DNA from: Paraescarpia echinospica | Taxonomy: Eukaryota > Annelida > Polychaeta > Sabellida > Siboglinidae | Reading direction: 5' to 3' | NCBI GenBank assembly: GCA_020002185.1 | Contig: CM034533.1 | Span: 42,784,880-42,848,879, forward strand | Length of the DNA stretch: 64,000 nt | Shown here: positions 8,011 through 49,428 of the stretch, one piece after another | How the letters are laid out: each line of letters begins with the position of its first letter | How positions within the stretch are numbered: position 1 is the stretch's first letter | Notes under the pieces: model-generated | Seen by the model: the letters and a program-made list of their open reading frames with translations, nothing else | Database searches by the model: none | What the model was told of the DNA's origin: nothing | Translations under genes and position numbers: made by a program

Positions 8011-8617
<607 letters not shown>

Positions 8618-24299: not shown

Positions 24300-24519
24300 G
24301 TAATCTTGAAAGTACTACAAACTACTCCATTTGATTTTTGTTGCTTACTGACATTTGACATTGTTCCAAACTTCCAGTCCCCTTTATGAGCACCCGTGCC
24401 TGCTGTTTTTCTCTTCAGTGCTATATTTTGGATTATGCTTTGATGAATTAGATAGACAATTTTTATCAGGTCACGCCTGGTCTTTTTTTACCATATTCTA
24501 CACTATTTTCAAAAGTGAA

Positions 24520-25636: not shown

Positions 25637-25762
25637 TGAAAGAAGGAGAAACGAGAGAAGAAGGAGAAGAGGTCGAAGAAGAAGAGTGACTACATAGAGG
25701 CTGAGGGTATCACCATGCCCACTTAGGAACCCGCAACCCCCGCCACATACAAACTGCTGGTC
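25637..25762 (+). pseudogene. AP3D1: Candidate AP3D1 lysine-rich hinge exon with in-frame TAG
   Basis: One frame reads KKEKREKKEKRSKKKSDYIE then AEGITMPT, a TAG at 25724-25726, and EPATPATYKLL before a GTCAGT donor. The K/E-rich run matches the lysine-rich tract that precedes the ear in human AP3D1, and the phase-0 end would join exon e. The acceptor is unclear and the incoming phase does not fit exon c cleanly. The TAG could be read as mutated CAG. It may alternatively be intronic purine-rich sequence. Confidence 0.4.
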
Positions 25763-28737: not shown

Positions 28738-28785
28738 CCAATGTCCAGCTACAAATTGTTGGCTGAGGATGCGTCTCTTAAAATG
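28738..28785 (+). CDS. AP3D1: AP3D1 exon e: start of the ear domain
   Basis: A 48-nt exon with acceptor TTTTGTTTCAG, donor GTTAGT and phase 0/0, reading PMSSYKLLAEDASLKM. Human AP3D1 has PESSYSLLAENSYVKM at the start of the appendage (ear), a very close match. Joined to exon f the frame continues without a break (KM-TYETRV against human KM-TCDIRG). Confidence 0.92.
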
Positions 28786-29176: not shown

Positions 29177-29317
29177 ACTTACGAGACACGAGTGTGTCTG
29201 GAGCAGAGCTACCAGGTCGTCGTCTCTATCATCTTCTCGAATCTCAACTTGAATCACCTCAAAGACCTCAACTTCAATGTCCTCGACTCACTCAACTCTA
29301 AGCTCGTCTGCAGCAGC
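29177..29317 (+). CDS. AP3D1: AP3D1 exon f: ear beta-sandwich
   Basis: A 141-nt exon with acceptor GATTGTTTCAG, donor GTGAGT and phase 0/0, reading TYETRVCLEQSYQVVVSIIF then SNLNLNHLKDLNFNVLDSLN and SKLVCSS. Human AP3D1 has TVAIVLENRSSSILKGMELS and VLDSLNARM here. The last 29 nt of the exon together with the donor and about 29 nt of intron form the unit of the 58-bp minisatellite that starts here. Confidence 0.93.
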
Positions 29318-29693
29318 GTGAGTAGAGTCTTAGACCACTTTATACCGACTCAACTCTAAGCTCCTCCGCATCAAAGTGAGTAGAGTCTTAGACCACTTTA
29401 TACTCACTCAACTCTAAGCTCCTCCGCATCAACGTGAGTAGAGTCTTAGACAACTTTATACTCATTTAACTCTAAACCTGTCCGCAGCAGCATGAGTAGA
29501 GTCTCAGACCACTTTATACTCACTCAACTCTAAGCTCAACTGCAGCTGCGTAAGTAGAGTCTTAGACCACTTTACATACTCAACTCTAAGCTCGTCTGCA
29601 CTGCAGCAGTGTGAGTAGAGTCTTAGACCACTTTATACTCACTCAACTCTAAGCTCGTCTTCAGCAGCATAAGTAGAGTCTTAGACCACTTTT
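29289..29693 (+). repeat. 58-bp minisatellite seeded on the exon f 3' end and donor site
   Basis: About seven units of CACTCAACTCTAAGCTCGTC TGCAGCAGC followed by GTGAGTAGAGTCTTAGACCA CTTTATACT. Unit 1 is the real exon end plus donor; later units repeat both. The donor position reads GTGAGT, GTGAGT, GTGAGT, ATGAGT, GTAAGT, GTGAGT and ATAAGT through the array. The array is cut at 29693 by CR1 copy 3 and continues at 44185-44342. As 58 is not a multiple of three, use of a later donor shifts the frame. Confidence 0.95.
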
Positions 29694-29714
29694 TAACAAG
29701 AGATTTAACAAGAT

Positions 29715-29744
29715 TGCCATCCAGAGAATTAACTCTAGATGGCA
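29715..29744 (-). other. Conserved 3'-terminal hairpin of the CR1 family
   Basis: TGCCATC-AGAG and CTCT-GATGGCA form a stem around AATTAA just before the AATCTTGTTA tail. It recurs at 3656-3685, 9728-9757, 36088-36116 and, on the other strand, 46400-46429. In the last copy both arms change together (GCCACC with GGTGGC), so the pairing is kept. LINE 3' hairpins of this kind are the usual recognition site for the element's own reverse transcriptase. Confidence 0.7.
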
Positions 29745-29791
29745 GGTGGACAAGGAAGCCCTTTGGCTTATCGAGAGTCCAACCCTTTTAT

Positions 29792-32305: not shown

Positions 32306-33684
32306 CCTGTCCCACTGTCAACAGATCGCAGCAGATTCTCTGAGAATACTGCTGCCCCCTTTCCACTTAGATGGAGGCCATCTCTCATGTACATATCTTC
32401 TCTCCCAACAAAGTACCCCCATAAATCTAGGAATCCCACGCCCTCTTCCTCACACATCTGCTCAGCTAGTGCATTGATCGCCATCCTCTTACAGTTTCTG
32501 TATCTTGCCCCCCTTCCTCCCATTACTGGCAAAATTCCTGAGAGAATAACCTGTTTCACTCTTGTCTTCTTTAGCTTCCTCACTAGATATCTGTACTTCT
32601 GAACTATCCCAGTTGTTCCCTCCTTGTCTGCATTGTTTGTACCAACGTGTACTAGTATAGACCCTCCCTTGCCAAGCCCCAATACCTTCTCTACCCTTTC
32701 GGTCACATGCTCTATCCTAGCCCCCGGTAGACATACAACAACGTCATTCCCCTCGCATATAGTCTTGTCTGTTTTTCTCAGAATTGAATCGCCCATAAAC
32801 ACTCTCTCTTTTCTCCTTGCCCCCTCAATCACTGCCTTGGAGTAGCTCCTCCGGTTTGCAGATGTCTGGTTGTTGTCTTTTCCTCTTGTCGTCTTCTCTC
32901 CTGTCACATTCCTTTCCTTCTTTCCTGTCGCGTTTTCTCTTGTCCCCTTTCCTCCTGTCATCTTCTCTTCTAGCACATTTACTCTCTCTTCCTTTCGTCC
33001 CTTCTTCTTTCCTCCCATCACATTTTCTTCTCTCCTCTCCCGTCCCTTTTCCCCGGCTACCTCCTTCACTCCGGTAACTTTCTCCCCTGTCACCTTCACG
33101 CCTGTCATGTTTTCTGTTTTTTCCTGAACACTATGTCTTCTTCCATCAGTCTTCTGTCTCACAGTCTTACCAACTGCCTCTGTGGTATCTACCTCTTCAC
33201 CACCTGTATCGCTGTCGTGTCTCTCCTCGTTCTCTACAGTCTGACTACCTGCTGATCTATCCCCACTGGCCCGTTTTCTTTTCCTCTGCCAAACACTTTT
33301 CCTCCGTCCCTCTGTTTTCTCAATGTCTTGTTCCTTCACACCGGTCACCTTCCTTCCTCTCAGTCTCCTTTCTTCAGTCTCCGTGTCACAACTCTGCTCC
33401 TTCCGTGTTGTAGAATTCTCAACTCTCTCCGCGCCATCCCTCTCTGCTCCATCTATTTCTATGTTGAGTCTCGCCTCCATCTCCTTCACTATGTCCGTCA
33501 ACTTACACACCTCCTTCATCAGATATTCCACCCTCAAACACCCCATACACCGAAATGTGAATCCGTCATCTTTGGTCTCTGCCCATGATTTTGGACAGCC
33601 AGACAACGCAAAATCCACCCAGCTCTGGCAGTCGTTGCAAACTAGGTGTCGTTTTGCCATGAGTTGCTGCTTGCAAGGTGCCAT
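32287..33684 (-). CDS. CR1 ORF1, intact 465 aa: PHD-like finger, TGxK-repeat linker, SGNH esterase
   Basis: ATG at 33684. A PHD-like finger at about 13-49 (HLVCNDCQSWVDFALSGCPK, FTFRCMGC), a short helix at 55-75 (MKEVCKLTDIVKEMEARLNI) and a highly charged linker at 80-285 with repeated TGVK, TGEK and TGGK blocks. The SGNH hydrolase spans about 290-455: MGDSILRKTD (Ser), VGTNNADKEG and RDGLHLSGKG (Asp, His). It ends IYLN at the TTTAAAC-TAA junction. This is the known ORF1 plan of CR1 elements, and it is the only unbroken ORF1 in the window. Confidence 0.92.
   Translation of the reverse strand: MAPCKQQLMAKRHLVCNDCQSWVDFALSGCPKSWAETKDDGFTFRCMGCLRVEYLMKEVCKLTDIVKEMEARLNIEIDGAERDGAERVENSTTRKEQSCDTETEERRLRGRKVTGVKEQDIEKTEGRRKSVWQRKRKRASGDRSAGSQTVENEERHDSDTGGEEVDTTEAVGKTVRQKTDGRRHSVQEKTENMTGVKVTGEKVTGVKEVAGEKGRERREENVMGGKKKGRKEERVNVLEEKMTGGKGTRENATGKKERNVTGEKTTRGKDNNQTSANRRSYSKAVIEGARRKERVFMGDSILRKTDKTICEGNDVVVCLPGARIEHVTERVEKVLGLGKGGSILVHVGTNNADKEGTTGIVQKYRYLVRKLKKTRVKQVILSGILPVMGGRGARYRNCKRMAINALAEQMCEEEGVGFLDLWGYFVGREDMYMRDGLHLSGKGAAVFSENLLRSVDSGTGCIYLN
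32290..32296 (-). promoter_or_regulatory. Putative -1 frameshift heptamer TTTAAAC (CR1 copy 3)
   Basis: ORF1 ends TAT TTA AAC TAA. T TTA AAC is in the correct X XXY YYZ phase and touches the stop (32287-32289). The -1 frame continues as LNSQGGLAEK into the endonuclease. No ATG occurs in ORF2 before the conserved CVCLNARSI block, so ribosomes must enter by frameshift or non-AUG reinitiation. The heptamer is the one used by coronaviruses and several retroelements. Confidence 0.65.
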
Positions 33685-33865
33685 ATCAGAATAAATCTTA
33701 TGTTCAAAGTAGTTTTATGTAGTCTTTGAAAAGACTTTTCTGTGTACAATTTACACCAGATTGTTTAAGTTATAATTAGTTATATTTGTTAACACACAGT
33801 GACACACCGTGCCTTAGCTAGTTACGATGTCGATGACAATGTATTCAAGTTAGGCTTAGATACAA

Positions 33866-34433
33866 GGTAGTCTTTACAAAGACTGTTTCCTGTGTACTAT
33901 TATACACTTTAAAAGATTGTTATTTCAGGTTTTAATTACTAATCTAACTACACCGATTATCTCAAATAACGCTATTCTATTGTCGTTCACGGTACGCTAA
34001 CTTCGCCAGTGACCTACTTTGTAAACAACGTTCCGATTACATTAACGTCCCCAATTATCGTTCGCAAATTGCCTACTTTTAATCTACCCTAGATTACTCC
34101 CTCTAGCTAACTTTTAACAAAAAATATTGCTTAATATATTGATTTTATGTGAGGCAGCGATGCAATATTTATAGTAAAGGTGCAGATGGTAGCGCCCCCT
34201 AGTAGATAGGCCTGGAGTTTCCCTAGTGATCAAGCTGAGACCAACGCGGAGGAATATGTAAAGGAGTGATAGGGGCTATATAGGCCAGCCACAAAGGAAA
34301 TTCAGCCTCACTCTCTGGTTTGGTTTGATTCAGTGTATACTATTGGCTCGCCAATCACCAAGATTCTGTGTGCTGTTTTTATGTCGATTTAGTTATATTT
34401 GGTATCGTTGTTTTGTGTTAATCGTGTGAGTTA
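33866..34433 (+). other. Non-coding region upstream of SGNH ORF, possible promoter
   Basis: No ORF. 34273-34282 reads GGGCTATATAGGCC, a TATA-like sequence, and is followed at a promoter-like distance by CTCACTCTCTGGTTTGG. AGCGCCCCCTAGTAGATAGG lies upstream. It may be the 5' control region of the element that encodes the SGNH protein, but no terminal repeat was found to prove this. Confidence 0.35.
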
Positions 34434-34616
34434 GTGTGTTGTAGGCGGGGTATTAGCGGAGTTGGAGGAAGGTACGAAGGAGTTCGAACACGGGGACAGC
34501 GTGGTGACGCCATTTGCGCCAGCGTGGGCTATTGGCATTACAAGGTAACCATCATCGTGGGTCGAGCGAGGAAGCTGTGCAAAGATAAGTATAATTTATT
34601 TTGTTACAGTAAGCGT

Positions 34617-35231
34617 ATGATGGATAGTGGCAAGGAAAGTAAGGCGTTAGCATTAGTGATTGGCGATAGCCACGTATTCTGGCTACAGAAGTTTGTCGAG
34701 TCCGAGACGGTTCGTTTTTTTCCGGGGTCGCCGCTCGCGGGTAATGATTGCCGCATCAGTTTTGCGGGTTATCGGGGCGGTTCGGTAAGTTCGGTGGGTA
34801 GCCATAGAGGTTTGGCGAGGAGTGTGGCAAGGGATTTACCTCGGGTTGTGGTCATGAGTGTAGGGGGTAACGACATAGACAGTGCGCCAGGACACCAAGT
34901 ATTGAAAGTAGGGATGCGTCTGTACGAGGTTGCCCAGGATTTGGTTAGAAGAGGGGTTGAGCGCGTGGTGATATGCCAGGTGGTGAAACGTAAAACATAT
35001 CGCCACATTTCAAGCGAGGAAGGAGCTAGGCGCGTAGTCGAAATTAATGAATTTCTTAAGGCAGTGTGTGACACCGGTAAGATTAGCTTTTGGAAGCACA
35101 AAGGGTTGTGGAACTCGCGGCACGAAATTTTTCGGCCAGATGGAGTTCACTTCAACGATCTCGGTAATTACAAGCTATGGCGCAGTGTTAGGGGAGCAGT
35201 TTTTATGGCAGTGAAGAGCATTAAGATGTAA
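34617..35231 (+). CDS. SGNH/GDSL hydrolase-like ORF of a retroelement
   Basis: 204 residues from ATG 34617; the frame is open upstream to 34434. SGNH blocks: ALALVIGDSHVFWL (Ser in GDS), VVMSVGGNDIDSA (GGND) and FRPDGVHFNDLGNYKLW (Asp/His). DLVRRGVERVVICQVVKRKT fits the fold between them. Such stand-alone SGNH ORFs accompany Ngaro/DIRS-type tyrosine-recombinase retrotransposons in many invertebrates, and one such element starts at 39540. TTGTTACAGTAAG just before the ATG is the same motif that repeats in the hairpin array downstream. The frame is unbroken, so the copy is young or conserved. Confidence 0.7.
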   Translation: MMDSGKESKALALVIGDSHVFWLQKFVESETVRFFPGSPLAGNDCRISFAGYRGGSVSSVGSHRGLARSVARDLPRVVVMSVGGNDIDSAPGHQVLKVGMRLYEVAQDLVRRGVERVVICQVVKRKTYRHISSEEGARRVVEINEFLKAVCDTGKISFWKHKGLWNSRHEIFRPDGVHFNDLGNYKLWRSVRGAVFMAVKSIKM

Positions 35232-35414
35232 GTGTGCGGGGTCGCCGACTGACAGTATCGACACAGTGGTAAGTGAGTGAATGTGAAACTTCAAAAGTTG
35301 ACGCTAATGTTATAGATTCGTAATGGTTACTTGGATAATACAATGAATAGGCGTACCTATGTGATATAGTAATGGGATGTTTGTTGGTAGTGATGCTGGC
35401 AAAACAGTAATGTT

Positions 35415-35800
35415 CAGTATCTACGATCAGTCGTCCTTACTGCCAACAGTAAGTGTGATCAGAACATGAGTGAGTGGGAATTACGACTGGTCGTCCTTAC
35501 TGGGAACAGTAAGTGTGTAATAGTCGATAATGCAGTCTACGATAGTAAAGTTAGACGTTTACGACCAGTCGTCCTTACTTGTTACAGTAAGTGTGAAATG
35601 TATGCGTTTGGGTTTGGTTACGACTGGTCGTCCTTACTGGGAACAGTAAGTGTGTAATAGTTGGTGATGCAGTCTAAAATAGTAAAGTTAGACGTTTACG
35701 ACCAGTCGTCCTTACTTGTTACAGTAAGTGTGAGATGTATGCGTTGGGGGTTCGCTATGGCTGGTCGTCCTTACTGGTACAGTAAGAGTGCAATCGTTCG
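35415..35800 (+). repeat. Array of six to seven paired dyads downstream of SGNH ORF
   Basis: Units of 55-80 bp, each with CGACYRGTCG (self-complementary type) followed by TCCTTACT and, after 3-5 nt, ACAGTAAGTG. The CTTACTG/CAGTAAG arms form a hairpin in every unit; neighbouring units alternate CGACTGGTCG and CGACCAGTCG. Spacers repeat alternately (TAGTAAAGTTAGACGTTTA or AAATGTATGCGTT). It resembles in layout the hairpin array at 43330-43690 behind the recombinase ORF. Confidence 0.8.
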
Positions 35801-36074
35801 GGATGATAATGGCTAAGTTAGTAATACTAGGTGTTGCGCCCAGTTGTCCTTAATGGGACCGTTATGGTTAATGGTTGGTAATCCGTTACGGATAATGATT
35901 GGTAATTGGTTGTGATGAGCAACATTGGATGTTTATGTTTTAGTAAGTTGATAAGTTAGGGTAAGGGGTTGCAATAAGCTGCATTTATTGGACACAGTAC
36001 GTGCGATAGCGGGAGTGAGTGAATATAATGGGTTTTACCTATCGTAGGTGTCTTAAGGGTGTAATGAGATGGAA
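35801..36074. other. Gene-free stretch before CR1 copy 4
   Basis: G/T-rich sequence with loose TGGTTGGTAAT-type repetition and no ORF. It ends at the 3' tail of CR1 copy 4. Confidence 0.5.
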
Positions 36075-37557
36075 AATTTAACAAGATTGCCATCCAAAAA
36101 ATTACTCTGGATGGCAGGTGGACAAGGAAGCCTTTTGGCTTATCGAGAGTCCAATACTTTTTATCTACATGTATCCCGCCTTTTTAAGGTGTGTGTCGAT
36201 TTTAGTTTTAAACATTCACGCTACTAGCACCAACACAATCAGGAGATAATCTGTTCCATTCATTTACAGTCCTCTGTGAGAATGAGAACTTTCTTATATC
36301 TAATCTACACTGCTCCTTCACTAATGTAGCTTCATGTCCTCTAGTCCTTCTATCTTTCTTAACTGAGAAAAAAATATTTCTATCAATATTTTCATAACGA
36401 CCAATATTTTAAACACTCTATGCATCTCCTCTCACCTCCTGGTCTCTAATGTTGTTAAACCACATTCCCTTTGTGGCTTATTTCTGTAACCAGACCCCCG
36501 TGATTTGCATCATCTTTAGCCTCTGTACTCTTTCTAGCATATCTATGTCCTTCTTAAGGCTATGGGCCTCCATGCTTTGTATACACATATTCTAAACAGC
36601 TCCCACTATTGTTTTGTACAGCGGTACTATTAATTTTTCTATATCGCTATATTTCACCTAATTAATCCATGACGATTTCCTTTGACGCTGCACCTGCACT
36701 GCTCTGAACCCTTCATATCTACCAAGCAACTCAAAGTCCTTTCTTTTTATATAGTACTCTAGAACAGTACCCCCCATTTTATATTTTACCTCTCTCATTC
36801 CCATGACTATGGAGGTGGTACTTACATTTCCCTAAAAATTGGAATTACATTTGCCAATTTTCAGAATTAGCCTTTGATCAACCTATCAAGATCATCTTGT
36901 AAATGCTGTCTGTCTCCATCACTTTTAATCCTTCTAAACACTTTTGTATCATCCGCAAATTTTAACACCTTGCTTGTTATATCATCGTCCAAATCGTTGA
37001 TATATATTAAGAATAATATAGGTCCTAGTACTGATCCCTGTGGTACCCCACTCAATACCGATTTCAGTTTGAAGCCTCCCCATCAACTACTACACGTTGT
37101 CTTCTGTCATTCAGCCATTTTTCTATCCAGTTTATTATACCATTTCCTATGCCATGGGCCTTTAGCATAAGGAGTAATCTTTGATGTGGTACTTTGTCGA
37201 AAGCTTTTTGAAAATCTAAATAGATGATATCTACTGGTGATCCCTCATCTACCCACCTAGTGATGTCTTCCAAAAAACATAACATATTTGTTAAGCATGA
37301 CCTCGCTTTTAAAAACCCATGTTGAGATAGGTTTATCAAGTTATGTTTAACAAGAAAATCCACCATGTGATCTTTAATTAGTCTTTCTAATAATTTGCAA
37401 ATCACTAATGTTAAACTCACTGGTCTATAGTTCTCTGACTTGTTTCTCGAACCTTTTTTAAATAACGGTATAATGTTTGCCTCTTTCCATTCTAAAGGAA
37501 CCACTCCCTCTTCTAATGACAAATTGAAAACTGTTGCAAGCGGTACGCTAATTTGTT

Positions 37558-38858
37558 CTACAATTTCCAATAGTAGTTTGGGCGAATCCCGTCCACTCCA
37601 GGTGATTTATTATCCTTCATAGCCCTTATTTTCTTAGCTACCATTTCCGAGGTTACAACTAACTGTCCTAAATAGTCTGAATCTGCCCCCTTGAACTTAG
37701 CCTCTGGTACTGGCAGTGAACTAATATCTTCCCTGGTAAACACTGAACTAAAATACTCATTGAGGTCTTCTGCCATTAAGAATCCCTCTGATATTGTATT
37801 TCCAGCACTATCTTCAAGAGGACCGACCTTATCCTGAACTTTCTGTTTGCTTCGAATATACGCATAAAAACTCTTACTGTCATGTTTTATATTACTAGCT
37901 AATTTTTTTTCATAGCTTCTCTTTGAATTTCTAATTTCAGCTGTAGCTTGATTAAGTGCTTCTTTATAAATGTAGTCTTCATCATTTCCAGTACATCTAT
38001 ATGACTTCCACATCATTTGTTTATACTTAATTTTTCTAATGGCTTCTTTCGATAAGTGTTTCTTTTTAGACCGTTTCCCTTGTTTTTTGAAAGGTACAAA
38101 TTTATCGACTATGCATTTAATTTCACTATTTAAGATATTCCAGCATTCGGTTGCTGTCTTATTCTTCAGTGTGTTATTCCAGTCTATCTTTGCTAAATAT
38201 TTCCTTATGTCCTTATATTTTCCTTTGTGAAAATTTCTCCTGTACTGCTTTTTACTATTCCTTTCTGATTTTACTTTGATGGTAAAATGTATCTGGCTGT
38301 GATCACTACTTCCCAGAGGCTCACATAATTTAACATTATCAACTAATTCATTCTGTGAGGACAAAACTAAGTCTAACACATTCTCTCCCCTGGTTGGTTC
38401 TAGCACATGTTGAGAAAGGAAACTATCTTGTACTAAAACTAAAAACTTGTGGTCCTCACTCCCCATACTCTGTAGAGATTTCCATTGTATATGCCCATGG
38501 TTAAAGTCCCCATAATAATACAGTTCCGTTTGCTTACTTCCCTTATAGCGTTTTGTATTTTTTCATTCTCTTCTATGCTTATGTTTGGACTTCTATAAAC
38601 TAACCCAACTGTTAACGTTGAGTTTCCTGTAACTATGTTACACCAAACAGCTTCTTCGCAATCTGCTTCTCTTTCTAATTTTATTTCATAAGCCTGGATA
38701 GATTCTTTAATATATAAAATAACTCCACCTCCCTTTCTTCCTATTCTATCTTTCCTAAACATTACATATCCTGTTAGTCCCAATTCGGCATCTGGTATAT
38801 CAGTGGTGGCCCACGATTCGGTTATACCTATTATGTGAGGGTCAATATCTTCTACCAT
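37558..38858 (-). pseudogene. CR1 copy 4 ORF2 endonuclease and linker
   Basis: 38439-38858 carries MVEDIDPHIIGITESWATTD and GRKGGGVILYIKESIQAYEI; a one-base loss near 38505 damages the GDFN block (IMGTLTMG). 37558-38466 carries LDLVLSSQNELVDNVKLCEP, GSSDHSQIHFTIKVKSERN, the linker and KSPGVDGI. RT continues in 37064-37570 and 36867-37055 after further shifts. Inactive. Confidence 0.85.
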
Positions 38859-39022
38859 AATGTTTAGTTCACTTCTTTTGTTTACTATGCTCCTTGCATT
38901 TAAACAAATGTATTTATATCCTGATTCAGAACAGTTTTCCAGGCTGTTCTTTGCCGATTTATTTCTGCTGTCTTTATCTATGCCTCCAGTTTCAGGCTTC
39001 TCTGTGAATCCCCCCTGCGAAT

Positions 39023-39516
39023 CTAGTTTAAATAGATGCAGCCTGTCCCACTGTCAACAGATTGCAGTAAGTTCTCTGAGAAAACTGCTGCCCCCTTTCC
39101 ACTTAGATGTAGGCCATCTCTCATGTACATATCTTCCCTCCCAACAAAGTATCCCCATAAATCTACGAATCCCACCCCCTCTTCTTTACACATCTGCTCA
39201 ACTAGTGCGTTGATCGCCATCCTCTTGCAGTTTCTATATGTCGGCCCCTTCCTCCCATTACTGGCAAAATTCCTGAGAGGATAATCTGTTCTACTCTTGT
39301 CTTCTTTAACTTCTTCACTAACTGTCTGTACTTCTGAACTATCCCAGTTGTTCCCTCCCTCTCTGCGTTATTTGTCCCTACATGTACTAGTATAGACCCT
39401 CCCTTGCCATGCCCCAGTACCTTCTCTACCCTTTCAGTTACATGTTCTATCCTAGCCCCCGGTAGACAAACAACGACGTCCTCCCCCTCGCTTAGAGTCT
39501 TATCTGTCTTTCTCAA
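39023..39516 (-). pseudogene. CR1 copy 4 ORF1, SGNH esterase fragment
   Basis: Frames 39202-39516 (VVVCLPGARIEHVTERVEKV, VHVGTNNAEREGTTGIVQKY) and 39023-39220 (EEGVGFVDLWGYFVGREDMY, MRDGLHLSGKG) are joined across a small indel at about 39240. The GDS block is just beyond the truncation point. Confidence 0.85.
39026..39032 (-). promoter_or_regulatory. TTTAAAC frameshift heptamer (CR1 copy 4)
   Basis: Same position and phase as in copies 2 and 3, although the ORF1 stop behind it is TAG (39023-39025) instead of TAA. The heptamer is unchanged while neighbouring bases differ. Confidence 0.6.
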
Positions 39517-39648
39517 TTCAGTGATATCAATCGATAAGTGACATTGTTCGGATATGTGGACTCAATGTAAAGGACCAGGTGGTCCGTATGGTTGGAAATG
39601 TTGTATTGGTTTCCTATTGAAATATAACACCACCCATCATATTGTAGA

Positions 39649-40731
39649 ATGGCGCCGGTGAGGCAGTCTGTCCGGCAGCGTGCCAGGGCGGCAGCAAGTG
39701 GTCATCCCCCACAGATTCAAGACGTGCCAGCAGCAGTCCAAGTAGACCCTGCGGCTAGACTGGCAACAGCATCTGCTGCGAGTGCTGCTCGTCGACGCTG
39801 GGAAGCGAACATCGAGAGTCGTCTCGATGCGACAGACCAGCTCCGTCGGGAACTGCGGGAGGTGAAGGACTTGCTGCAGTCGGTCGTACCTAACGTGATG
39901 CCGGCGACGGCAAGTCAACCGATACCTGGGTCTGCTTCGTCGTCGGATATGGCGCAGGGAACTGCCATGGTGGAACCTCCATGGCCTAATGGAGAAGGCA
40001 TGGTGGGATCGTGCCAGTCAATAGATACAGGTATGGTGCAGTGTATGCAGAATTTGCCGGGGCCGACGCAGACAAGGGTGGCCAAAGTAATTAGTAACTC
40101 CTTGTCTCTTCATGGTCATGTTCCTAGTAAAATTAGAAGTAAGATATGGGAGGGTGAATTTGTTGATATGCACTCTCTCCTTCCAGAAGCCACATTCACA
40201 CAACCAGATCTATCCCTCTCAATCCGTCCTGAAGGAGATAGTGGTAGCCCAGCTGTTTGCGTCGTGCCGAAGCCCAAAACAGAAATCAGGTCATTCTACG
40301 TATGGTCCAAAGCGTTTGATATATTCAGTTCAGTGTACATGCTGAAGCCAGGCAATATAGTGGAGGGCCCCAAGCTGCTTAAGTATAGGCACATCATCCG
40401 AAATCTATGTGAACGAGGGGGGAACTGGCGAGGGTATGACGAGTCCTTTCGCACTTTCAAAACAGTAGAGGGTTGGCAGTGGGATGAGATGCATTCTGAG
40501 TTGTGGCTGCAGGCGGCTCAGCCAGTGCCAAAGGGGCAAGGGCGGCCTCCCTTTCTTGGCAAGGGGGCAGCTCTCCGACTCGGACAATGCAATACATACA
40601 ACGCAGGTACCCCATGTCCCTACAATCCGTGCAGGTACAGACATGCATGCAGGTGGTGCGGGGCAGGGCATCCCGGGGTTAGATGTCCAAAGCATAGAAG
40701 AATCCCAGCTCAGCGGGGAGGGTTCAAGTAG
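39649..40731 (+). CDS. YR-retrotransposon ORF1 (Gag-like, zinc knuckle)
   Basis: 360 residues from ATG 39649. The N terminus is basic and Ala-rich (RQRARAAASGHPPQI), with a probable coiled coil at 60-85 (ESRLDATDQLRRELREVKDL). A central helical region (SFYVWSKAFDIFSSVYMLKP) is typical of the Gag-like ORF of DIRS/Ngaro elements. A Cys/His cluster lies near the C terminus (CNTYNAGTPCPYNPCRYRHA and CRWCGAGHPGVRCPKH). It presumably packages element RNA. It stops at 40729-40731, 16 nt before the likely ORF2 ATG. Confidence 0.8.
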   Translation: MAPVRQSVRQRARAAASGHPPQIQDVPAAVQVDPAARLATASAASAARRRWEANIESRLDATDQLRRELREVKDLLQSVVPNVMPATASQPIPGSASSSDMAQGTAMVEPPWPNGEGMVGSCQSIDTGMVQCMQNLPGPTQTRVAKVISNSLSLHGHVPSKIRSKIWEGEFVDMHSLLPEATFTQPDLSLSIRPEGDSGSPAVCVVPKPKTEIRSFYVWSKAFDIFSSVYMLKPGNIVEGPKLLKYRHIIRNLCERGGNWRGYDESFRTFKTVEGWQWDEMHSELWLQAAQPVPKGQGRPPFLGKGAALRLGQCNTYNAGTPCPYNPCRYRHACRWCGAGHPGVRCPKHRRIPAQRGGFK

Positions 40732-40747
40732 TAAAGGTGAACTGGTC

Positions 40748-42337
40748 ATGCCCTCGCCCGTATCCCCAGCCATACTCAGCAAGTGGTTACAGGGATATGA
40801 TATAGCTCAGATTGAATATCTGGTGAACGGTTTTGAAAAAGGCTTTGATATTGGGTGTTTAGGGATACCAATACAGAAGGATAAGAAAGTTGCTAACATG
40901 CGATCTGCTTTTGAATTACCACAGGTAATAGATATGAAGTTGCAGAAAGAATTATCGTTACAGAGAGTTTTAGGTCCCTTTGACATACTCCCCGATGACC
41001 CCACGTTTAGAGTGTCCCCCCTTGGTGTAGTGCCTAAAAAGTTACCAGGGGAATTTCGTATGATTCATAACTTATCTTACCCAGAAGGCTCTTCTGTTAA
41101 TGACTACATACCCAGTGAATTTAGCACAGTTCAATACGCAACAATACAGGACGCTATTTCCTTTATCAAGCAGGCCACCAATATCGTGTTTATGGCTAAA
41201 GTAGATATCGAATCTGCATTCAGAATAATTCCGGTAGCTTCGAAAGACCGTCCACTGCTAGGTTTCTGTTGGAAGGATAAATTTTACATGGACGCGGTCC
41301 TGCCAATGGGTTGTGCTAGTTCGTGTGCTATCTTTGAAGCTTTCAGCACAGCATTAGAGTGGGTGGCTGAGGAGAAGCTGGGTTTGACAAAGGTAATTCA
41401 TGTGCTGGATGACTTTCTGTTGTTAGCGGAGTCCACGGGGAAATGTCAAAGGGATTTGAAAGCGTTCATGCAAATGTGTAGAGAGCTAGGGGTTCCATTA
41501 GCACCAGATAAGACAGTTGGCTCATGTACGGAAATACAATTCCTAGGTATTACTCTCGATACAGTGTCAATGGAGGCCCGCTTGCCAGAAGACAAGTTGG
41601 AAAAGGGCAGGTCATTGTTACAGTCATTTCTTGGTAAGCACAAGGTCACACTCAGGGAGTTAGAGTCTCTGATAGGGTTACTCAGTTTCATGTGCTGTAT
41701 GTTGCGTTTTGCAAGGGCCTTTTTAAGAAGAATGATCGATATAACTCTTGGATTAAGCAAGCCTAATCACCACGTTAGGCTAACAAGGCAGGTCAAGTTG
41801 GATATGTTGGTCTGGCTGGAATTTCTTGATAATTTTAATGGCAGGTCTTTCTTTATAAATGATGAGTTTCTCACAGGAGATTATCTGCAGTTGTTCACGG
41901 ATGCATCGAGGGGCATAGGGTATGGGGCAGTATGTGGGCCTGAATGGTTTTATGGTGAATGGCCCATCTCTTGGCAAGCTCACAACATTACAGTATTGGA
42001 GTTATACCCCATTATGGCTGCTGTGGAGATGTGGGGGGAGGCCTGGGCAAACAGTAGTGTCTGTTTTGTTACGGACAATGAATCTTTGGTCTCGGTGCTC
42101 AACAAACAGTCATCCAAAGAATCATCAGTAATGGTGTTACTTCGTAAGTTGATTTTAACATGCTTGCGTTTGAATATTAATTTTACAGCCCGACATGTGC
42201 CAGGTCGGGACAATACACTTGCTGACAAATTGTCCCGTTCTCAGATCGACGAATTTCACAAGCTGGCACCAGGGGCCAATCACGAGCCGACCACACTGCC
42301 ATTCCACATCTCCCCGGCGGCCTTCGGGACACTGTAG
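40748..42337 (+). CDS. YR-retrotransposon ORF2: reverse transcriptase plus RNase H
   Basis: 529 residues from ATG 40748; the frame is open back to 40484, but that part overlaps ORF1 and has no homology. RT blocks: VVPKKLPGEFRMIHNLSYPE, FMAKVDIESAFRIIPV (first Asp), PLLGFCWKDKFYMDAVLPMG, CASSCAIFEAFSTAL, VIHVLDDFLLLAES (LDD catalytic pair) and FLGITLDTVSMEARLP. RNase H: LQLFTDASRGIGYGAV, LELYPIMAAVEMW, CFVTDNESLVSVLNK and RHVPGRDNTLADKLSR (D, E, D, D). Unbroken. It makes element cDNA in a circular-DNA pathway. Confidence 0.9.
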   Translation: MPSPVSPAILSKWLQGYDIAQIEYLVNGFEKGFDIGCLGIPIQKDKKVANMRSAFELPQVIDMKLQKELSLQRVLGPFDILPDDPTFRVSPLGVVPKKLPGEFRMIHNLSYPEGSSVNDYIPSEFSTVQYATIQDAISFIKQATNIVFMAKVDIESAFRIIPVASKDRPLLGFCWKDKFYMDAVLPMGCASSCAIFEAFSTALEWVAEEKLGLTKVIHVLDDFLLLAESTGKCQRDLKAFMQMCRELGVPLAPDKTVGSCTEIQFLGITLDTVSMEARLPEDKLEKGRSLLQSFLGKHKVTLRELESLIGLLSFMCCMLRFARAFLRRMIDITLGLSKPNHHVRLTRQVKLDMLVWLEFLDNFNGRSFFINDEFLTGDYLQLFTDASRGIGYGAVCGPEWFYGEWPISWQAHNITVLELYPIMAAVEMWGEAWANSSVCFVTDNESLVSVLNKQSSKESSVMVLLRKLILTCLRLNINFTARHVPGRDNTLADKLSRSQIDEFHKLAPGANHEPTTLPFHISPAAFGTL

Positions 42338-43205
42338 AGGTATTATTGCAAGCATCATTAGCTCCTTCATCCAGGGTACAATATGGGAGGGCTTGGACAA
42401 AGCTGGTAGGGTTTTTGCAGTCAGTAAACATAGTTCCCATTTTGCCAATTTCGGTCCCAAGTATGATGGTCTTCATAGCGCATTTGCATAACACCGGTTT
42501 CGCCCCAGCATCTATCGTGTCCACTGTATTGGCCATTTCATATTTTCATAAGATCAATGGTTTCCAGGACCCTGGAAAGAATTTCATTATATCTAAACTT
42601 TTGACAGGGGCTCAGAACTTAAGAGCAGTGCCAGATGTGAGATTGCCTGTAACTTTGCCAATACTCATCCAGCTAGTTAACGCGGTGCCTTCAGTAATTA
42701 CTTCGCATTATCAAGGTCTGATGATGCGAGCCATGATGGTTCTAGCTTTCAGAGCATACTTGAGGGTAGGGGAGATGGTCCCTCGTTCTAGCAAGGTAGT
42801 GCAAGGTTGTATACAGGTCCAGGACGTTACAGTCAGTGGTGAAATAATAACCGTTTCTTTCAGGCATTTTAAAAATAGTGGCAGACAAGATCCCCAGTAT
42901 GTGCAGATTGATGGTGAGTGTTTTCTTGGCACTTCCATTCACACAGCTAAGATAGTCAGGGAGTTTCAACAAGTCAGAGGGGTAGCGCAGGGTACGTTCT
43001 TCGCACATACAGATGGGAGGTCTATGTTGCGAAGAGAGTTTGATGGATTGTTCAGACGTCTGCTGGTATTCTGTGGCCTCAGTAGCACAGTTTTAGAATC
43101 GGGGCTGCGACGTCAGCAGCGCTGCGGGGGGAGTCTGATGCGCAAATTAGGGCAGACGGTAGATGGGCATCAGATGCATTCAAGAAATATATCCGTATAA
43201 CATGA
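42338..43205 (+). pseudogene. YR-retrotransposon ORF3: tyrosine recombinase, frameshifted before HxxR
   Basis: The frame begins without ATG, overlapping the end of ORF2, and reads LAPSSRVQYGRAWTKLVGFL (SAM-like N-terminal domain), MMVLAFRAYLRVGEMV (first catalytic Arg) and FCGLSS. At about 43085 the frame changes. The HSFRIGAAT block (HxxR, 43086-43112) and DGRWASDAFKKYIRIT (nucleophile Tyr, stop 43203-43205) are in the other frame, with several residues before HSFR missing. So a small deletion inactivated this copy. The enzyme would integrate circular DNA by site-specific recombination. Confidence 0.88.
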
Positions 43206-43329
43206 AGAAGGGATAACGCAGTTCCAAGTCTATGGAGGGTTCTGCCAAGCTTTGTCTTAAGTTAGTAGCAATGTGGTTAGGTTGGTAAAGGTTTTGGGCA
43301 AAGTCTAGTCTATGGTCAGGGTTCGGGTT

Positions 43330-43690
43330 ATACATTGGGGGTTCTGTCAGGGGCGGAGCACTCATATTGCGATATATATTGGTATTCCGTACGTGTGACT
43401 AAAAGCAGGTCGCATGCAGCAAGGTAGTTAAGTAAGGGAAGGGGTAATGAAGGCTAGGTGAGCGGGATTCTGATTCAAGTGTTCCAGAATGGATATTGGG
43501 GGCTCTGTCAGGGGCGGAGCCCTTGGTGATATTTTGGGGTGCTGGGTCAGGATCCAGATTCGTGCAGATACAGGATATTGATTGGGGGCTCTGTCAGGGG
43601 CGGAGTTCTTGGTTGTATCTTGGTTTGCAGGAAGTTAGGTATAAGGGTAACTCTGACAGGGGCAGAGTTATTAGTTAGGAGGTTAGCTAG
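43330..43690 (+). repeat. Four covarying hairpins behind the recombinase ORF
   Basis: Each unit reads GGGGGCTCTGTCAGGGGCGG followed by AGC or a variant. The arms GCTCTG and CGGAGC pair around TCAGGGG. In the last unit the arms are ACTCTG and CAGAGT, changed on both sides, so the stem is kept. Units start near 43337, 43497, 43585 and 43645. Probably part of the element's 3' non-coding region. Confidence 0.75.
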
Positions 43691-43746
43691 GTTTTGGTAT
43701 AGATGTAGGTGGGGGTCGGTTACATTGGATGTTGGGTAACCTGGTG

Positions 43747-44055
43747 GCGGAGTGACCCCCACCGTTACGGTGGTAGTGGGAAGTATAGTGCAGTCATGTA
43801 GTTAGTCATGTTAATAAGTAGATGTCTCGGAAGTTATATGCTTAGAAATTGTAGGTATTGCTTAACAATGCTGTTGGGGCCGGCATGCTTGCTGTGTATT
43901 GATGTATGTATATATGGTGTGGTTTTATGTATATATGGTGTTGTTTAATATGTGTTAGTGAATAAATGTCATTAAGTTGGCCTGGTTCAATCAACATTGG
44001 TCTTGTATCGTTGCTTTGCACAGAAAGGTGTATGTGACAGGGGCGCATACATATC
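43747..44055 (+). repeat. Terminal module of the YR element
   Basis: GAGTGACCCCCACCGTTACG GTGG (a CCACCG/CGGTGG hairpin) starts a 300-bp segment containing GGGGCCGGCATGCTTGCTGT, AATAAATGTCATTAAGTTGG and CAGGGGCGCATACATAT. The same order of motifs recurs at 54007-54290. AATAAA at 43971 could be the element's polyadenylation signal. Ngaro/DIRS elements have split direct repeats here, but I could not match A and B parts. Confidence 0.7.
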
Positions 44056-44184
44056 TATAATTACGTTATGTATGCTATACGCTCAATAATATCACTTATC
44101 TTGATCAAATATCCTTATATTTTCGCAAGTTTGCTGCACCAAATTCAAATCAATTCACCACCGGAAGTCCCCCAAAATTTTGTC

Positions 44185-44342
44185 TTTATACTCATTCAAC
44201 TCTAAGCTCGTCCACAGCAGCATGAGTAGAGTCTCAGACCACTTTATACTCACTCAACTCTAAACTTGTCTGCAGCAGCGTGAGTAGAGTGTTGGACCAC
44301 TTTATACTCACTCAACTCTAAGCTCGACTGCAGAAGTGTGAA
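44185..44342 (+). repeat. 58-bp AP3D1-derived minisatellite, right part
   Basis: Almost three units of the array begun at 29289 (CTCAACTCTAAGCTCGTCCA, donor positions ATGAGT, GTGAGT, GTGAAA). It is separated from the left part by the 14.5-kb transposon block and cut on its right at 44343 by CR1 copy 5. Confidence 0.95.
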
Positions 44343-46451
44343 AATAAGACAGCAACAGAATGCTGGAATATATTAAAGAGTGAAATTAAGTGCATGGTCG
44401 ATAAATTTGTACCCTTCAAAGAACAAGGGAAACGGTCCAAAAAGAAACACTTATCGAAAGAAGCCATTAGAAAAACTAAGTATAAACAAATGATGTGGAA
44501 TTCATATAGATGTACTGGAAATTATGAACACTACAACAGTTATAAAGAAGCACTTAACCAAGCTACAGCTGAAATTAGAAATTCAAAGAAAAGCTATCAA
44601 CAACAATTAACTAGTAGTATAAAATATGACAGCAAGAGTTTTTATGCGTATGTTCGAAGCAAACAGAAATTTCAAGATAAGGTCGGTCCTCTAGAATATA
44701 GTGCTGGAAATATAATATCAGAGGGATTCTTAATGGCAGAAGACCTGAATGAGTACTTTAGTTCAGTGTTTACCAGAGAAGATATTAGTTCACTGCCGGT
44801 ACCAGAGGCTAAGTTCACGGGGGCAGATTCAGACTATTTAGGACAATTAATTGTAACCCCGGAAATGGTAGCTAAGAAAATAAGGGCTATGAAGGATAAT
44901 AAACCACCTGGAGTGGATGGGATTCCGCCCAAACTACTATTGGAAATTATAGAACAAATTAGCATACCGCTTGCAACAGTTTTCAAACTGTAATTAGAAG
45001 AGGGAGTGGTTCCTTTAGAGTGGAAAGAGGCAAACATTATACCATTATTTTAAAAAGGGTTCAAGAAACAAGTCGGAGAACTATAGACCAGTGAGTTTAA
45101 CATCAGTGATTTGCAAATTATTATAAAGACTAATTAAAGATCACATGATGGATTTTCTTGTTAAACATAACTTGATAAACCCATCTCCACATGGATTTTT
45201 TAAAGCGAGGTCATGCTTAACAAATATGTTATGTTTTTTGGAAGACATCACTAAGTAGGTAGATGAGGGATCGCCAGTAGATATTGTCTACTTAGATTTT
45301 CAAAAAGCTTTCGACAAAATACCACATCAAAGATTACTGCTTAAACTAAAGGCATAGGAAATGGTATAATAAACTGGATAGAAAAATGGCTGATTGACAG
45401 AAGACAACGTGTAGTAGTTGATGGGGAGGCTTCAAACTGGAAATCGGTATTCAGTGGGGTACCACAGGGATCAGTACTAGGACCTATATTATTCTTAATG
45501 TATATCAACGATTTGGGTGATGAAATAACAAGCAAGGTGTTGAAATTTGCGGATGATACAAAAGTGTTTAGAAGTATTAAAAGTGATGGAGATAGACAAC
45601 ATTTACAAGATGATCTTGACAAGTTGATCAAATGGACTGAAAAATGGCAAATGCTGTTCAATTTTGGGAAATGTAAATGCCTCCACGCAGGACATGGGAA
45701 TGAAGAGGTAGAATATGCAATGGGGGTTACTGTACTAAGTACTACTATAAAAGAAAATGACTTAGGGTTAACCATTAGTGCTGATATGAAGGTTTCAGAG
45801 CAGTGTGGAATTGCAGCTTCAAAGGGAAATCAAATCCTTGGTTTAATTAGGCGAAACAAAACGTATAAGGAAAAAGAGCTAATAATACTGCTGTACAAAA
45901 CAATAGTGAGGCCTTATTTAGAATATTGTATTCAAGCATGGAGTCCATATCGCAGGAAGGACATTAATATACTAGAAAGAGTGCAGAGGAGAGCAACTAA
46001 AATGATACCAAAACTGAGGGATCTTAGTTACGAAATATGCCTAAAAAAATGCGACTTAACAACACTAGAGACCAGGAGATTGAGAGGAGATCAGATAGAA
46101 GTGTTTAACATAATGAATGGTTATGAAAATACTGATGAAAATATTTTTTTCTCATTAAGAACAATAGAAGGACTAGAGGACATAAAGTTACATTAGCAAA
46201 GGAGCAGTGTAGATTAGATATAAGAAAGTTCTCATTTTCACAAAGGACTGTAAATGAATGGAACAGATTATCTGCTCATTGTGTGGGTGCTAGTAGCGTG
46301 AATATGTTTAAAAATAAAATTGACACATTTGAGAAGGGTGGTATACACATAGATAAAAGGGTCGGACTCTCAATAAGCCAAAGGGCTTCCTTGTCCACCT
46401 GCCACCTAGAGTTAATTCTCTGGGTGGCAATCTTCTTAAATCTTGTTAAAG
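44343..46451 (+). mobile_element. CR1-type LINE copy 5 (+ strand, 5'-truncated)
   Basis: Same family as copies 1-4 in opposite orientation. It begins inside the endonuclease-RT linker (NKTATECWNIL-like) and ends with the hairpin at 46400-46429 and ATCTTCTTAAATCTTGTTAAA. ORF2 frames: 44394-44993 (linker to KPPGVDGIPPKLLLEII), then several stops and shifts through IIPLF, YLDFQKAFDKIPHQ and [20 protein letters not shown]. 45498-46196 carries [20 protein letters not shown] to RRLRGDQIEVF. Older than copies 1-3, judging by its many breaks. Confidence 0.9.
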
Positions 46452-46761: not shown

Positions 46762-47409
46762 AATGAAGAGGGAGCGACACAGGAGAAGATTGACTTCAAC
46801 TGAGTCTGCCGGGTACCTCCTACTTGGTTGGGGTGTCTTGTGATGGTTTGTAGAATAAAGATTAAGTGACACAAGAGAAGATTGACTTCAAGCTGAGTCT
46901 GCCGTGTATCTCCTACATGGTTGGGGTGCCTTGTGATGGGTGTGTAGAATGAATAGGAAGCAACACAGGAGAAGATTTACTTCAAGCTGAATCTGCCGTG
47001 TACCTCCTACTTGGTTGGGGTGCCTTGTGATGGATGTGTAGAATGAAGAGGAAGTAACACAGGAGAAGATTGACTTCAAGCTGAGTCTGCATTGTACCTC
47101 CTACTTGGTTGGGGTGCCTTGTGATGAGTGTATAGAATGAATAGGAAGCAACACAGGAGAAGATTGACTTCAAGCTGAGTCTGCCCTGTACCTCCTACTT
47201 GGTTGGGGTGCCTTGTGATGGGTGTGTAGAATGAATAGGAAGCAACACAGGAGAAGATTGACTTGAAGCTGAGTCTACCCCGTACCTCCTACTTGGTTGG
47301 GGTGCCTTGTGATGAGTGTATAGAATTAAGAGGAAGCAACACAGGAGAAGATTTACTTCAAGCTGAATCTGCCGTGTACCTACTACTTGGTTGGGGTGCC
47401 TTGTGATGG
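46762..47409 (+). repeat. AP3D1: Seven tandem 94-bp copies of an AP3D1 ear exon
   Basis: Starts at 46762, about 46854, 46948, 47042, 47136, 47230 and 47324; from copy 3 on the period is exactly 94. Each unit is an 86-nt exon plus GTGTGTAG (or a variant), which supplies a donor GT to the exon before and an acceptor AG to the exon after. Copy 1 begins NEEGATQEKIDF, as in human NDEGATHEKLDF, then loses a base. Copies 2, 3, 5, 6 and 7 have a stop at codon 3-4 or 2 (TAA or TAG). Only copy 4 is open. The 5' flank has the acceptor CTGTAG and the 3' flank a donor and then TTTCTTGTCTTCTAG. Confidence 0.95.
47042..47127 (+). CDS. AP3D1: AP3D1 exon g, the only open copy of seven
   Basis: Reads NEEEVTQEKIDFKLSLHCTS then YLVGVPCD plus two bases (GA), leaving in phase 2. 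Human AP3D1 has NDEGATHEKLDFRLHFSCSS and YLITTPCYSD. The next exon starts C-GATGCC, so the join gives a residue followed by DAFTKLL, matching human SDAFAKLL. Splice signals ATGTGTAG and GTGTAT come from the array itself. Whether it is the copy used in mRNA cannot be told from DNA alone. Confidence 0.8.
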
Positions 47410-47779
47410 GTGTGTTTCTTGTCTTCTAGCAGTTGTTAGATGTCTACAGTGGACACTTGAAAGTCCTGAAGGACTAGTTTGTAATGTCCACTACCTGTTC
47501 ATAATGGTAACCTGGCCATAATGGACATATTTCACAGTCTAAACAATGTCTACTATGGTCAAGTTTTACTGTGTATTGATAGGATTATGCTAGACTCACA
47601 GCTAACTGCACATTAAAATACTTGCAGGAGTTGCTTTTCAGACATGCTATTTGGATTCTATATGGAAAAAATCCCACAATAAAAAAATCTTACTCAAAAC
47701 CAACAAAACTAAGGAATGTCATGTAGTGTAGCATGTCCATGAAGTTTGAGAAAATATATAAGAGTTATGAATGATTATT
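47410..47779 (+). other. AP3D1 intron segment without recognised features
   Basis: Begins with the donor GTGTGT of exon-copy 7 and a pyrimidine-rich TTTCTTGTCTTCTAG that looks like a 3' splice site but has no exon behind it. The rest is plain AT-rich DNA. Confidence 0.5.
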
Positions 47780-48239: not shown

Positions 48240-48358
48240 CGATGCCTTCACCAAGTTACTAGGCAGTGGCGACCTGGAGTACAAGTCATCCATGTAGGCG
48301 ACAGTCGCCGAGCTGGATCCAATCCTCGCAAAGATCTGCTTCCTCGCCTACTTTTGCG
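48240..48358 (+). pseudogene. AP3D1: AP3D1 exon h: ear, in-frame TAG
   Basis: A 119-nt exon with acceptor CGTTTTTGACAG, donor GTAGGT, entering phase 2 and leaving phase 1. It reads DAFTKLLGSGDLEYKSSM, TAG (48295-48297), ATVAELDPILAKICFLAYFC. Human has SDAFAKLLESGDLSMSSIK and NLLAKICFHHHFS, so both halves are genuine and in the same frame, and the stop replaces one sense codon (AAG or CAG is the simplest source). The flanks are too short for an alternative intron that would skip it. Confidence 0.9.
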
Positions 48359-48823: not shown

Positions 48824-48906
48824 TGGTGGAGCAGATCGGTAACACTACATCTCTATACAGCCATAGCATCCGGACCCATTATCTGTGATTACTAGTGAAG
48901 CTGCAG
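48824..48906 (+). pseudogene. AP3D1: AP3D1 exon i: ear, in-frame TGA
   Basis: An 83-nt exon with acceptor CCTTCACTTGCAG, donor GTAAGG, entering phase 1 and leaving phase 0. With exon h it reads VVEQIGNTTSLYSHSIRTHY L, TGA (48886-48888), LLVKLQ. Human has VVERVDSCASMYSRSIQGHH VCLLVKKG; the TGA falls on the Cys codon (TGT or TGC to TGA, one change). The exon boundaries and phases are otherwise intact. Confidence 0.9.
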
Positions 48907-49338: not shown

Positions 49339-49428
49339 CCAAACACCTTGAACTTTGACGACAAGAGCAGCGACGAATCAATATTGTTGAACATCATAGA
49401 TGAGATCCGAGGTATCCTTACTACATAG
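49339..49428 (+). CDS. AP3D1: AP3D1 last exon j and stop codon
   Basis: Acceptor TTTTGTTTCAG, then an open phase-0 frame PNTLNFDDKSSDESILLNII DEIRGILTT and TAG. Human AP3D1 ends KCSDSTLLSNLLEEMKATLA KC, a clear match in pattern and position. It closes the adaptin ear. Confidence 0.9.
   Translation, partial: PNTLNFDDKSSDESILLNIIDEIRGILTT

What the first reader, a model, noticed from the sequence alone, without database searches (positions are those of the whole stretch)
46762..47409. A complete AP3D1 exon amplified into a seven-copy minisatellite with an 8-nt spacer that is both donor and acceptor
Each 94-bp unit is the 86-nt exon encoding NEEGATQEKIDF...YLVGVPCD plus GTGTGTAG or a variant. 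GT at its left end is the donor of one exon copy and AG at its right end the acceptor of the next. The unit therefore carries all splice signals, yet the copies cannot be spliced to each other because an 8-nt intron is impossible; one copy must be chosen, or the exon is lost. Five copies have early stops, one has a frameshift and only copy 4 is open. This is a natural test of splice-site choice among near-identical competing exons, and a possible route to rapid exon turnover. I recall reports of minisatellites across splice junctions in amphioxus genes but cannot check them here.
Basis: partly seen in the sequence, partly recalled or inferred. Interest (0 to 1): 0.88.

Follow-up and report, generated by a model that had tools for sequence, protein, structure and literature searches.

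The report
Dead-gene exon turned dispersed minisatellite
One exon of the gene AP3D1 has become a tandem repeat inside dead, scattered copies of that gene in what is probably a deep-sea tubeworm, while the working gene elsewhere keeps the exon once, so this is a case of how an exon can seed a repeat rather than a live test of splicing.

Summary
The array is real: seven units at 46762-47417 (TRF period 94, score 1059; best of 200 shuffles 47), each the AP3D1 exon plus 7-8 nt. The setting was misread. The working gene lies elsewhere (C2, 14.42-14.49 Mb) with the exon once, open. The window holds a dead partial duplicate: one neighbouring exon is gone, two later exons carry stops shared by most fetched sisters, and codon positions diverge equally. 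The next exon occurs at 59 places and a unit core at 1277. So 'one copy must be chosen' has no live AP-3 product here. The seed is visible: in the working gene GTGTGTA sits at both splice sites, exactly 94 bp apart. Copies with one unit, seven, and 70 or more coexist. Closest known: amphioxus 'mirages' and internal tandem repeats in human segmental duplications. In passing: the working gene has a mirage-like 58-bp repeat across a donor.

The parts
46762..47417 (+). Seven-unit array of the AP3D1 exon plus 7-8 nt spacer (unit starts 46762, 46854, 46948, 47042, 47136, 47230, 47324)
   Evidence: TRF; unit table; live-gene comparison
47042..47135 (+). Copy 4, the only open copy; three amino-acid differences from the exon of the live gene
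22474..22589 (+). AP3D1 exon remnant (YVNKAIEK...VPVPKG); the match runs from 22434, its first part not resembling AP3D1
   Evidence: tblastn
24150..24302 (+). AP3D1 linker-region exon remnant (approximate start)
   Evidence: tblastn with Lamellibrachia protein P0001, match 24081-24302
25029..25142 (+). AP3D1 linker-region exon remnant
25622..25756 (+). AP3D1 linker-region exon remnant with two in-frame stops in the aligned stretch (the first lies near its start and may be outside the exon)
28738..28785 (+). AP3D1 exon (PMSSYKLLAEDASLKM)
29177..29317 (+). AP3D1 exon whose donor end is inside the 58-bp repeat
29286..29692 (+). 58-bp minisatellite across that donor site (7.0 copies); a 58-bp array is also in the live gene
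   Evidence: TRF
29693..44183 (.). Block of LINE-like and other mobile-element sequence inside the 58-bp array in this copy; in the C9 copy the sequences matching 29692 and 44184 lie about 50 bases apart
   Evidence: ORFs; C9 copy, L017
44184..44341 (+). Rest of the interrupted 58-bp array
44322..46450 (+). LINE remnant, present at least in part in 8 of 10 fetched left flanks of sister copies (not in C14:17.0 or C2:27.53 Mb), lying where the live gene has the exon DGVKVPF...MYIVK, which is absent here
   Evidence: ORFs; repeats; flanks; homology with the live gene resumes at 46450; exon absent
48241..48358 (+). Next AP3D1 exon, with an in-frame TAG at 48295-48297
48824..48906 (+). Penultimate AP3D1 exon, with an in-frame TGA at 48886-48888
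49339..49428 (+). Last AP3D1 exon, ends in the normal stop

Best explanation
The array is a neutral minisatellite inside a dead, partial duplicate of AP3D1 in a siboglinid tubeworm (most likely Paraescarpia echinospica). Origin: in the live gene the exon is bracketed by the same short sequence, GTGTGTA, at its acceptor and at its donor, 94 bp apart. Slippage or unequal exchange between these two short repeats in a duplicate produced a tandem copy of 'exon plus one spacer' whose junction is automatically donor on the left and acceptor on the right. Once tandem, the array grew and shrank by ordinary minisatellite turnover. An already dead, array-bearing copy (one exon replaced by a LINE, stops in two later exons) was then spread to many places as part of long genomic segments. 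SHOWN: live gene with a single exon; 94-bp spacing of the GTGTGTA pair; stops shared among duplicates; a first-unit deletion and a last-unit donor variant shared among arrays; equal divergence at the three codon positions; genome-wide counts. INFERRED: slippage or unequal exchange as the act of duplication; the order of events; segmental duplication as the vehicle; the species.
For: Live gene with one open exon and open downstream exons. Outside C2:14.464-14.494 Mb nothing matched AP3D1 residues 1-238 except one 27% adaptin-like place on C12, all 23 of 23 candidates being scored, so no other full-length copy was found. GTGTGTA at 2889 and 2983 of the reversed L044 is the only 7-mer repeated at spacing 60-110 in the 150 bp examined. 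In one search the in-frame TAG is in 12 of 13 distinct duplicates that hold that exon and the TGA in 11 of 12; the exception both times is C14:17.0 Mb, which has its own deletion and stop. Genome-wide, an exact 21-base pattern in that exon occurs 59 times: 29 with TAG (window included) and 30 with CAG (live gene included). Of 188 non-redundant units from 13 duplicate arrays, 62 are open, 105 have a stop and 21 an indel; divergence from the live exon is 5.3, 6.9 and 5.9% at codon positions 1, 2 and 3. A 23-base unit core occurs 1277 times (up to 1 mismatch; reversed control 0). The first held unit carries the same 1-bp deletion in 10 of 13 arrays, and the last held unit the donor variant GTGTGTTTC in 7 of 13 (several arrays are cut by the ends of the fetched stretch). 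Unit numbers: 1 at C2:52.1 Mb, 7 in the window and at C4, 72 seen at C2:27.53 Mb. In 2 kb of 3' flank the window and seven other copies (C4, C2:27.44, C5, C12, C6, C3:0.55, C10) are 0.8-2.8% apart, and about 10% from the live gene.
Against: Copy 4 is open, and 62 of 188 units are open, so a coding product from some unit is not formally excluded. 29 of the 58 duplicates counted lack the TAG. The single-exon copy at C2:52.1 Mb, fetched, has neither the TAG nor the TGA and no stop in its matched C-terminal exons; some partial duplicates could be transcribed. C7:38.2 Mb has the TAG together with the exon that the window lacks, so the losses did not all happen at once, or copies have exchanged sequence. 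Splice-site dinucleotides are kept in most units (AG in 181 of 188, GT in 157 of 178 that align there), although much of this is shared descent. In C2:52.1 Mb and in 7 of 13 arrays' last held units the donor side reads GTGTGTTT, so the repeat may have been 6 rather than 7 bases when the first duplication occurred. Two copies are more diverged: C2:27.53 Mb (about 4% from its sisters) and C9:28.24 Mb (about 16%).
Confidence: 0.92

Rival explanations
1. One reading: this is the working AP3D1 gene, and the spliceosome picks one of seven competing exon copies or skips the exon.
For: Exon identity, spacer with donor and acceptor, one open copy; [quoted passage not shown]
Against: Another locus has the complete gene with a single open exon; this locus lacks exon DGVKVPF...MYIVK and has in-frame stops in the next two exons.
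Confidence: 0.03
2. The truncated duplicates are transcribed and some spliced RNA includes one unit, giving a non-coding or truncated product with variable exon use.
For: Most units keep AG and GT; 29 of 58 duplicates lack the shared TAG.
Against: No match to the live gene's first 238 residues was found at any duplicate; codon positions diverge equally.
Confidence: 0.15
3. The array is an assembly artefact.
For: The best-fitting published assembly is built from Illumina and nanopore contigs with Hi-C (PMC8476170, passage), where repeat number can be wrong; the window has a gap of about 1 kb of N near 17.6-18.6 kb.
Against: Array matches lie at dozens of places (190 matches; 39 of 134 candidates scored), with different unit numbers, unit-specific variants and shared end units.
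Confidence: 0.02
4. The array is a satellite with a role in chromatin (for example near centromeres) that was co-opted from the exon.
For: 1277 unit cores; several loci clustered on the same chromosomes, e.g. C2:27.39-27.53, C3:42.83-42.99, C9:28.24-28.37 Mb.
Against: The total is only about 0.12 Mb by inference (1277 x 94 bp), in arrays inside gene duplicates where I looked; centromere positions are unknown to me.
Confidence: 0.05

Closest known systems
'Mirages' of amphioxus genes (Adh3, TnC, globins BflGb6 and BflGb9; PMC3087553, passages read; PMC3902484, one passage read)
   Same: Minisatellite-like tandem repeats that include an exon-intron boundary; unit number varies; cluster ends escape the homogenisation seen inside.
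   Different: Mirages duplicate one boundary in a live gene; here the unit is a whole exon with both boundaries, in dead duplicates, in an annelid, with more than a thousand unit cores in the genome. The 58-bp array of the live AP3D1 gene is the better match to a mirage.
Variable internal tandem repeats in human genes hosted in segmental duplications (PMC2812944, passages including part of the abstract read)
   Same: Minisatellite expansion in large families of recent segmental duplicates, some of it at exon-intron boundaries, changing gene structure between paralogues.
   Different: Those units average 30 bp repeated 4 times and are retained in, or spliced out of, transcribed genes; here a full exon plus spacer is the unit and the duplicate in the window is dead.
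Exon tandem duplication leading to mutually exclusive exons (recalled)
   Same: Neighbouring near-identical exons with their own splice sites.
   Different: Those have introns long enough to splice and are under selection; here the spacer is 8 nt and there is no sign of coding constraint.

Membership tests
Working AP3D1 gene | Full set of exons including the N-terminal trunk | tested here: not met
   Residues 1-238 matched only at C2:14.464-14.494 Mb, apart from a 27% adaptin-like place on C12; 23 of 23 candidates scored; no trunk exon in the window
Working AP3D1 gene | Open reading frame through the C-terminal exons | tested here: not met
   In-frame TAG at 48295 and TGA at 48886, one exon absent
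Processed (retro) pseudogene | Introns removed, poly-A tail | tested here: not met
   Introns and 3' flanking DNA are conserved with the live gene
Duplicated (unprocessed) pseudogene | Introns kept, disabling changes, intact parent elsewhere | tested here: met
Minisatellite | Tandem units of roughly 10-100 bp, variable number | tested here: met
   94-bp units, 7 in the window, 72 seen at C2:27.53 Mb
Amphioxus-type mirage | Tandem repeat spans an exon-intron boundary | tested here: met
   Unit spans both boundaries
Amphioxus-type mirage | Resides in a working gene that is spliced normally | tested here: not met
   Locus is a partial duplicate with stops; expression itself not testable here
Amphioxus-type mirage | Length instability between individuals or cells | not testable with these tools
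   Only between-locus variation was seen

The most novel reading that the evidence does not exclude
Short GT-rich repeats shared by the acceptor and donor of an exon are a general seed that turns whole exons into self-contained 'exon plus splice-site' minisatellites in this lineage; gene duplicates that carry them form a graded natural series (one unit, seven, tens of units), and any that are transcribed would yield RNAs with a chosen or skipped unit, or antisense RNA against the live gene.
Probability: 0.12. Interest if true: 0.62.

Novelty: new variant of a known kind. Interest (0 to 1): 0.42.

Why it matters
It shows, with the parent state preserved in the same genome, how a repeat can be born from an exon: a 6-7 bp repeat at the two splice sites sets the unit boundaries and makes the junction double as donor and acceptor. 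Because copies with one unit, seven units and long arrays coexist among close duplicates, growth of such arrays can be studied in one genome. The live AP3D1 gene of the same genome also carries a 58-bp repeat across a donor site, which would move the 'mirage' phenomenon outside amphioxus and is the better place to test splice-site choice.

Tried and rejected
Rejected: amphioxus as host (closest protein is Lamellibrachia satsuma, 88%; the listed Branchiostoma proteins are at 54%). Rejected: processed pseudogene (introns kept). Rejected: LINE 3' transduction as the vehicle, because homology among copies runs past the gene end, to 59.3 kb of the window in L016, and trunk exons (residues about 285-576) occur upstream of arrays on C2, C11 and C12. 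Led nowhere: Pfam with short exon peptides gave only a sub-threshold fn3 hit at E 0.22; searches for mirages or minisatellites at splice junctions or in annelid genes listed nothing that I recognised as this case outside amphioxus and human segmental duplications (listings only), and none for tubeworm segmental duplications. Not obtained: the ends of the duplicated segment (the search did not complete). Fetched but not analysed: L043, and L029-L040.

Rows dropped: one search keeps units whose match covers positions 15-90 of the reference, from 17 listed loci, the window and L042, de-duplicated by position; L041 (same place as the live L044) was not used, and the live unit was excluded from the 188. 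Ten of the 188 did not align at the donor and are left out of the GT count. The second tree left out the C9 copy; the first included it. Pattern counts are lower bounds for the family, and small unplaced contigs could be second alleles of placed loci. In one search only 39 of 134 candidates were scored.

Full report
THE OBSERVATION. TRF reports one array at 46757-47415 with period 94, 7.0 copies and score 1059; 200 shuffles of the region never exceeded 47. I cut it into units at 46762, 46854, 46948, 47042, 47136, 47230 and 47324, ending at 47417. Copy 1 is 92 bp and frameshifted; copies 2, 3, 5, 6 and 7 stop within the first four codons; copy 4 is open. The spacers after copies 2, 4, 5, 6 and 7 start with GT; those after copies 1 and 3 do not.

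WHAT GENE. tblastn with a recalled human AP3D1 finds the C-terminal half of AP3D1 across 22.4-48.9 kb of the window and none of the N-terminal trunk. A protein search scored on a 223-residue C-terminal stretch (16 recalled human residues, the rest translated from the live tubeworm gene) finds AP-3 delta of Lamellibrachia satsuma first (88%), then other animals at 61% or less among the 120 listed of 686. Each of the 120 listed proteins gives one match to the exon peptide. The genome holding the window has 1.084 Gb in 3111 contigs; the Paraescarpia echinospica assembly is described as 1.09 Gb with 14 pseudochromosomes (passages of PMC8476170). The species is therefore an inference; that it is a siboglinid relative of Lamellibrachia is well supported.

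WHERE THE WORKING GENE IS. A query of human AP3D1 residues 1-271 matches, for everything before residue 239, only C2:14.464-14.494 Mb, apart from one 27% adaptin-like place on C12; all 23 candidates were scored. The remaining exons follow on the same strand. In the reversed locus L044 the exon is present once, open, as ...CTGTGTGTGTAG|AATGAAGAG...TGTGATGG|GTGTGTATC..., followed by open downstream exons and a normal end.

WHAT THE WINDOW HOLDS. The window copy differs from the live gene by about 10% in the 2 kb 3' flank. It lacks the exon DGVKVPF...MYIVK: a LINE remnant lies in its place, and homology to the live gene resumes at 46450. It has an in-frame TAG in the next exon and a TGA in the penultimate one. 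Among the distinct duplicates the TAG is in 12 of 13 and the TGA in 11 of 12; the exception is the C14:17.0 Mb copy, which has its own deletion and stop and still has the missing exon. A further copy fetched later, C2:52.1 Mb, has neither stop, and C7:38.2 Mb has the TAG together with the exon missing here. Across the genome an exact pattern in that exon gives 59 places, 29 with TAG and 30 with CAG, live gene included. So 58 places besides the live gene hold a partial duplicate, half of them (29) with the TAG; some small contigs may be second alleles.

NO SIGN OF CODING CONSTRAINT. From 13 duplicate arrays I aligned 188 non-redundant units to the live exon: 62 open, 105 with a stop, 21 with an indel. 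Divergence by codon position is 5.3, 6.9 and 5.9%, with no third-position excess. The units share ancestry, so they are not 188 independent observations.

THE SEED. In the live gene the heptamer GTGTGTA ends one base before the exon and begins again right after it; the two copies are 94 bp apart, and no other 7-mer in the 150 bp examined is repeated at spacing 60-110. The repeat period is 94. A unit made by slippage or unequal exchange between the two heptamers has exactly the observed junction, GATGG-GTGTGTAG-AATGAA: donor side on the left, acceptor side on the right. This explains why the spacer is 'both donor and acceptor' without any appeal to function. The single-exon duplicate at C2:52.1 Mb carries the acceptor GTGTGTAG and a donor GTGTGTTTC, the same donor variant as the last held unit of 7 of 13 arrays; so it looks like the pre-array state of the duplicates, with a shared 6-mer.

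GROWTH AND SPREAD. Unit numbers seen: 1 (C2:52.1 Mb), 7 (window and C4), 9, 18, 19, 23 and 72 (several arrays are cut by the ends of the fetched stretch); at C7:38.2 Mb the stretch held has 4 and a further unit matches about 4 kb away. Matches on contig C2494 run from 210 to 8889, about 92 units by length (inference). The same first-unit deletion in 10 of 13 arrays and the shared last-unit variant in 7 of 13 suggest that the array arose once before the spread, while inner units vary. Of 188 units, 91 have their nearest or tied relative in the same array, so homogenisation within arrays is weak. In trees of the 3' flank the dispersed copies are separated from C2:52.1 Mb, C14:17.0 Mb and the live gene with support 1.000; the order among those three is not resolved. 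Eight of ten right-hand flanks match the window out to 55.6-59.3 kb; the other two (C14:17.0 and C3:0.55 Mb) stop near 50 kb. So the spreading unit is long genomic DNA rather than a retrocopy. I could not find its ends.

VERDICT. Observation confirmed. What remains is a clear example of an exon becoming a dispersed minisatellite by way of a short repeat at its splice sites. Related phenomena are known (PMC3087553, PMC3902484, PMC2812944: passages read); I saw no report of this one in the listings, which says little about subscription journals, mostly missing from that library.

Noticed in passing
L044 (G000:C2:14421001-14428500, reversed) about 1040-1664; window 29286-29692 and 44184-44341: The live AP3D1 gene itself has a 58-bp minisatellite that repeats the end of an exon together with its donor GTGAGTAGAG. 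Lamellibrachia's protein is consistent with use of the first copy only. This is a mirage in the amphioxus sense, in an annelid.
   Followed up: partly
L045 (G000:C2:52116501-52119500): A single-exon AP3D1 duplicate whose matched C-terminal exons carry no stop; N-terminal exons are not found there, so it is truncated, but its expression would be worth checking.
   Followed up: partly
G000:C2:8864651-8888349: Another AP3D1 duplicate with a stop-free trunk exon match (residues 494-574) and the same variant as the live gene in the later exon.
   Followed up: no
G000:C2:27.39-27.53 Mb, C3:42.83-42.99 Mb, C9:28.24-28.37 Mb, C11:29.09-29.18 Mb, C14:37.0-37.3 Mb: The AP3D1 duplicates cluster several to a region on some chromosomes, and many lie on small unplaced contigs; the cause is unknown.
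   Followed up: no
L042 and G000:C7:38215962-38220904: A duplicate that has both the exon missing from the window and the shared TAG, so the disabling changes came in steps or copies have exchanged sequence.
   Followed up: partly
window 29693-44183: About 14.5 kb of LINE-like and other mobile-element ORFs inside the 58-bp minisatellite of this copy; the C9 copy shows the site almost uninterrupted.
   Followed up: partly
window 54971-55651: A 40-bp minisatellite (17 copies) in the 3' flank of the duplicate; it lies within the homologous segment of several sister copies, where overlapping matches suggest length variation.
   Followed up: no
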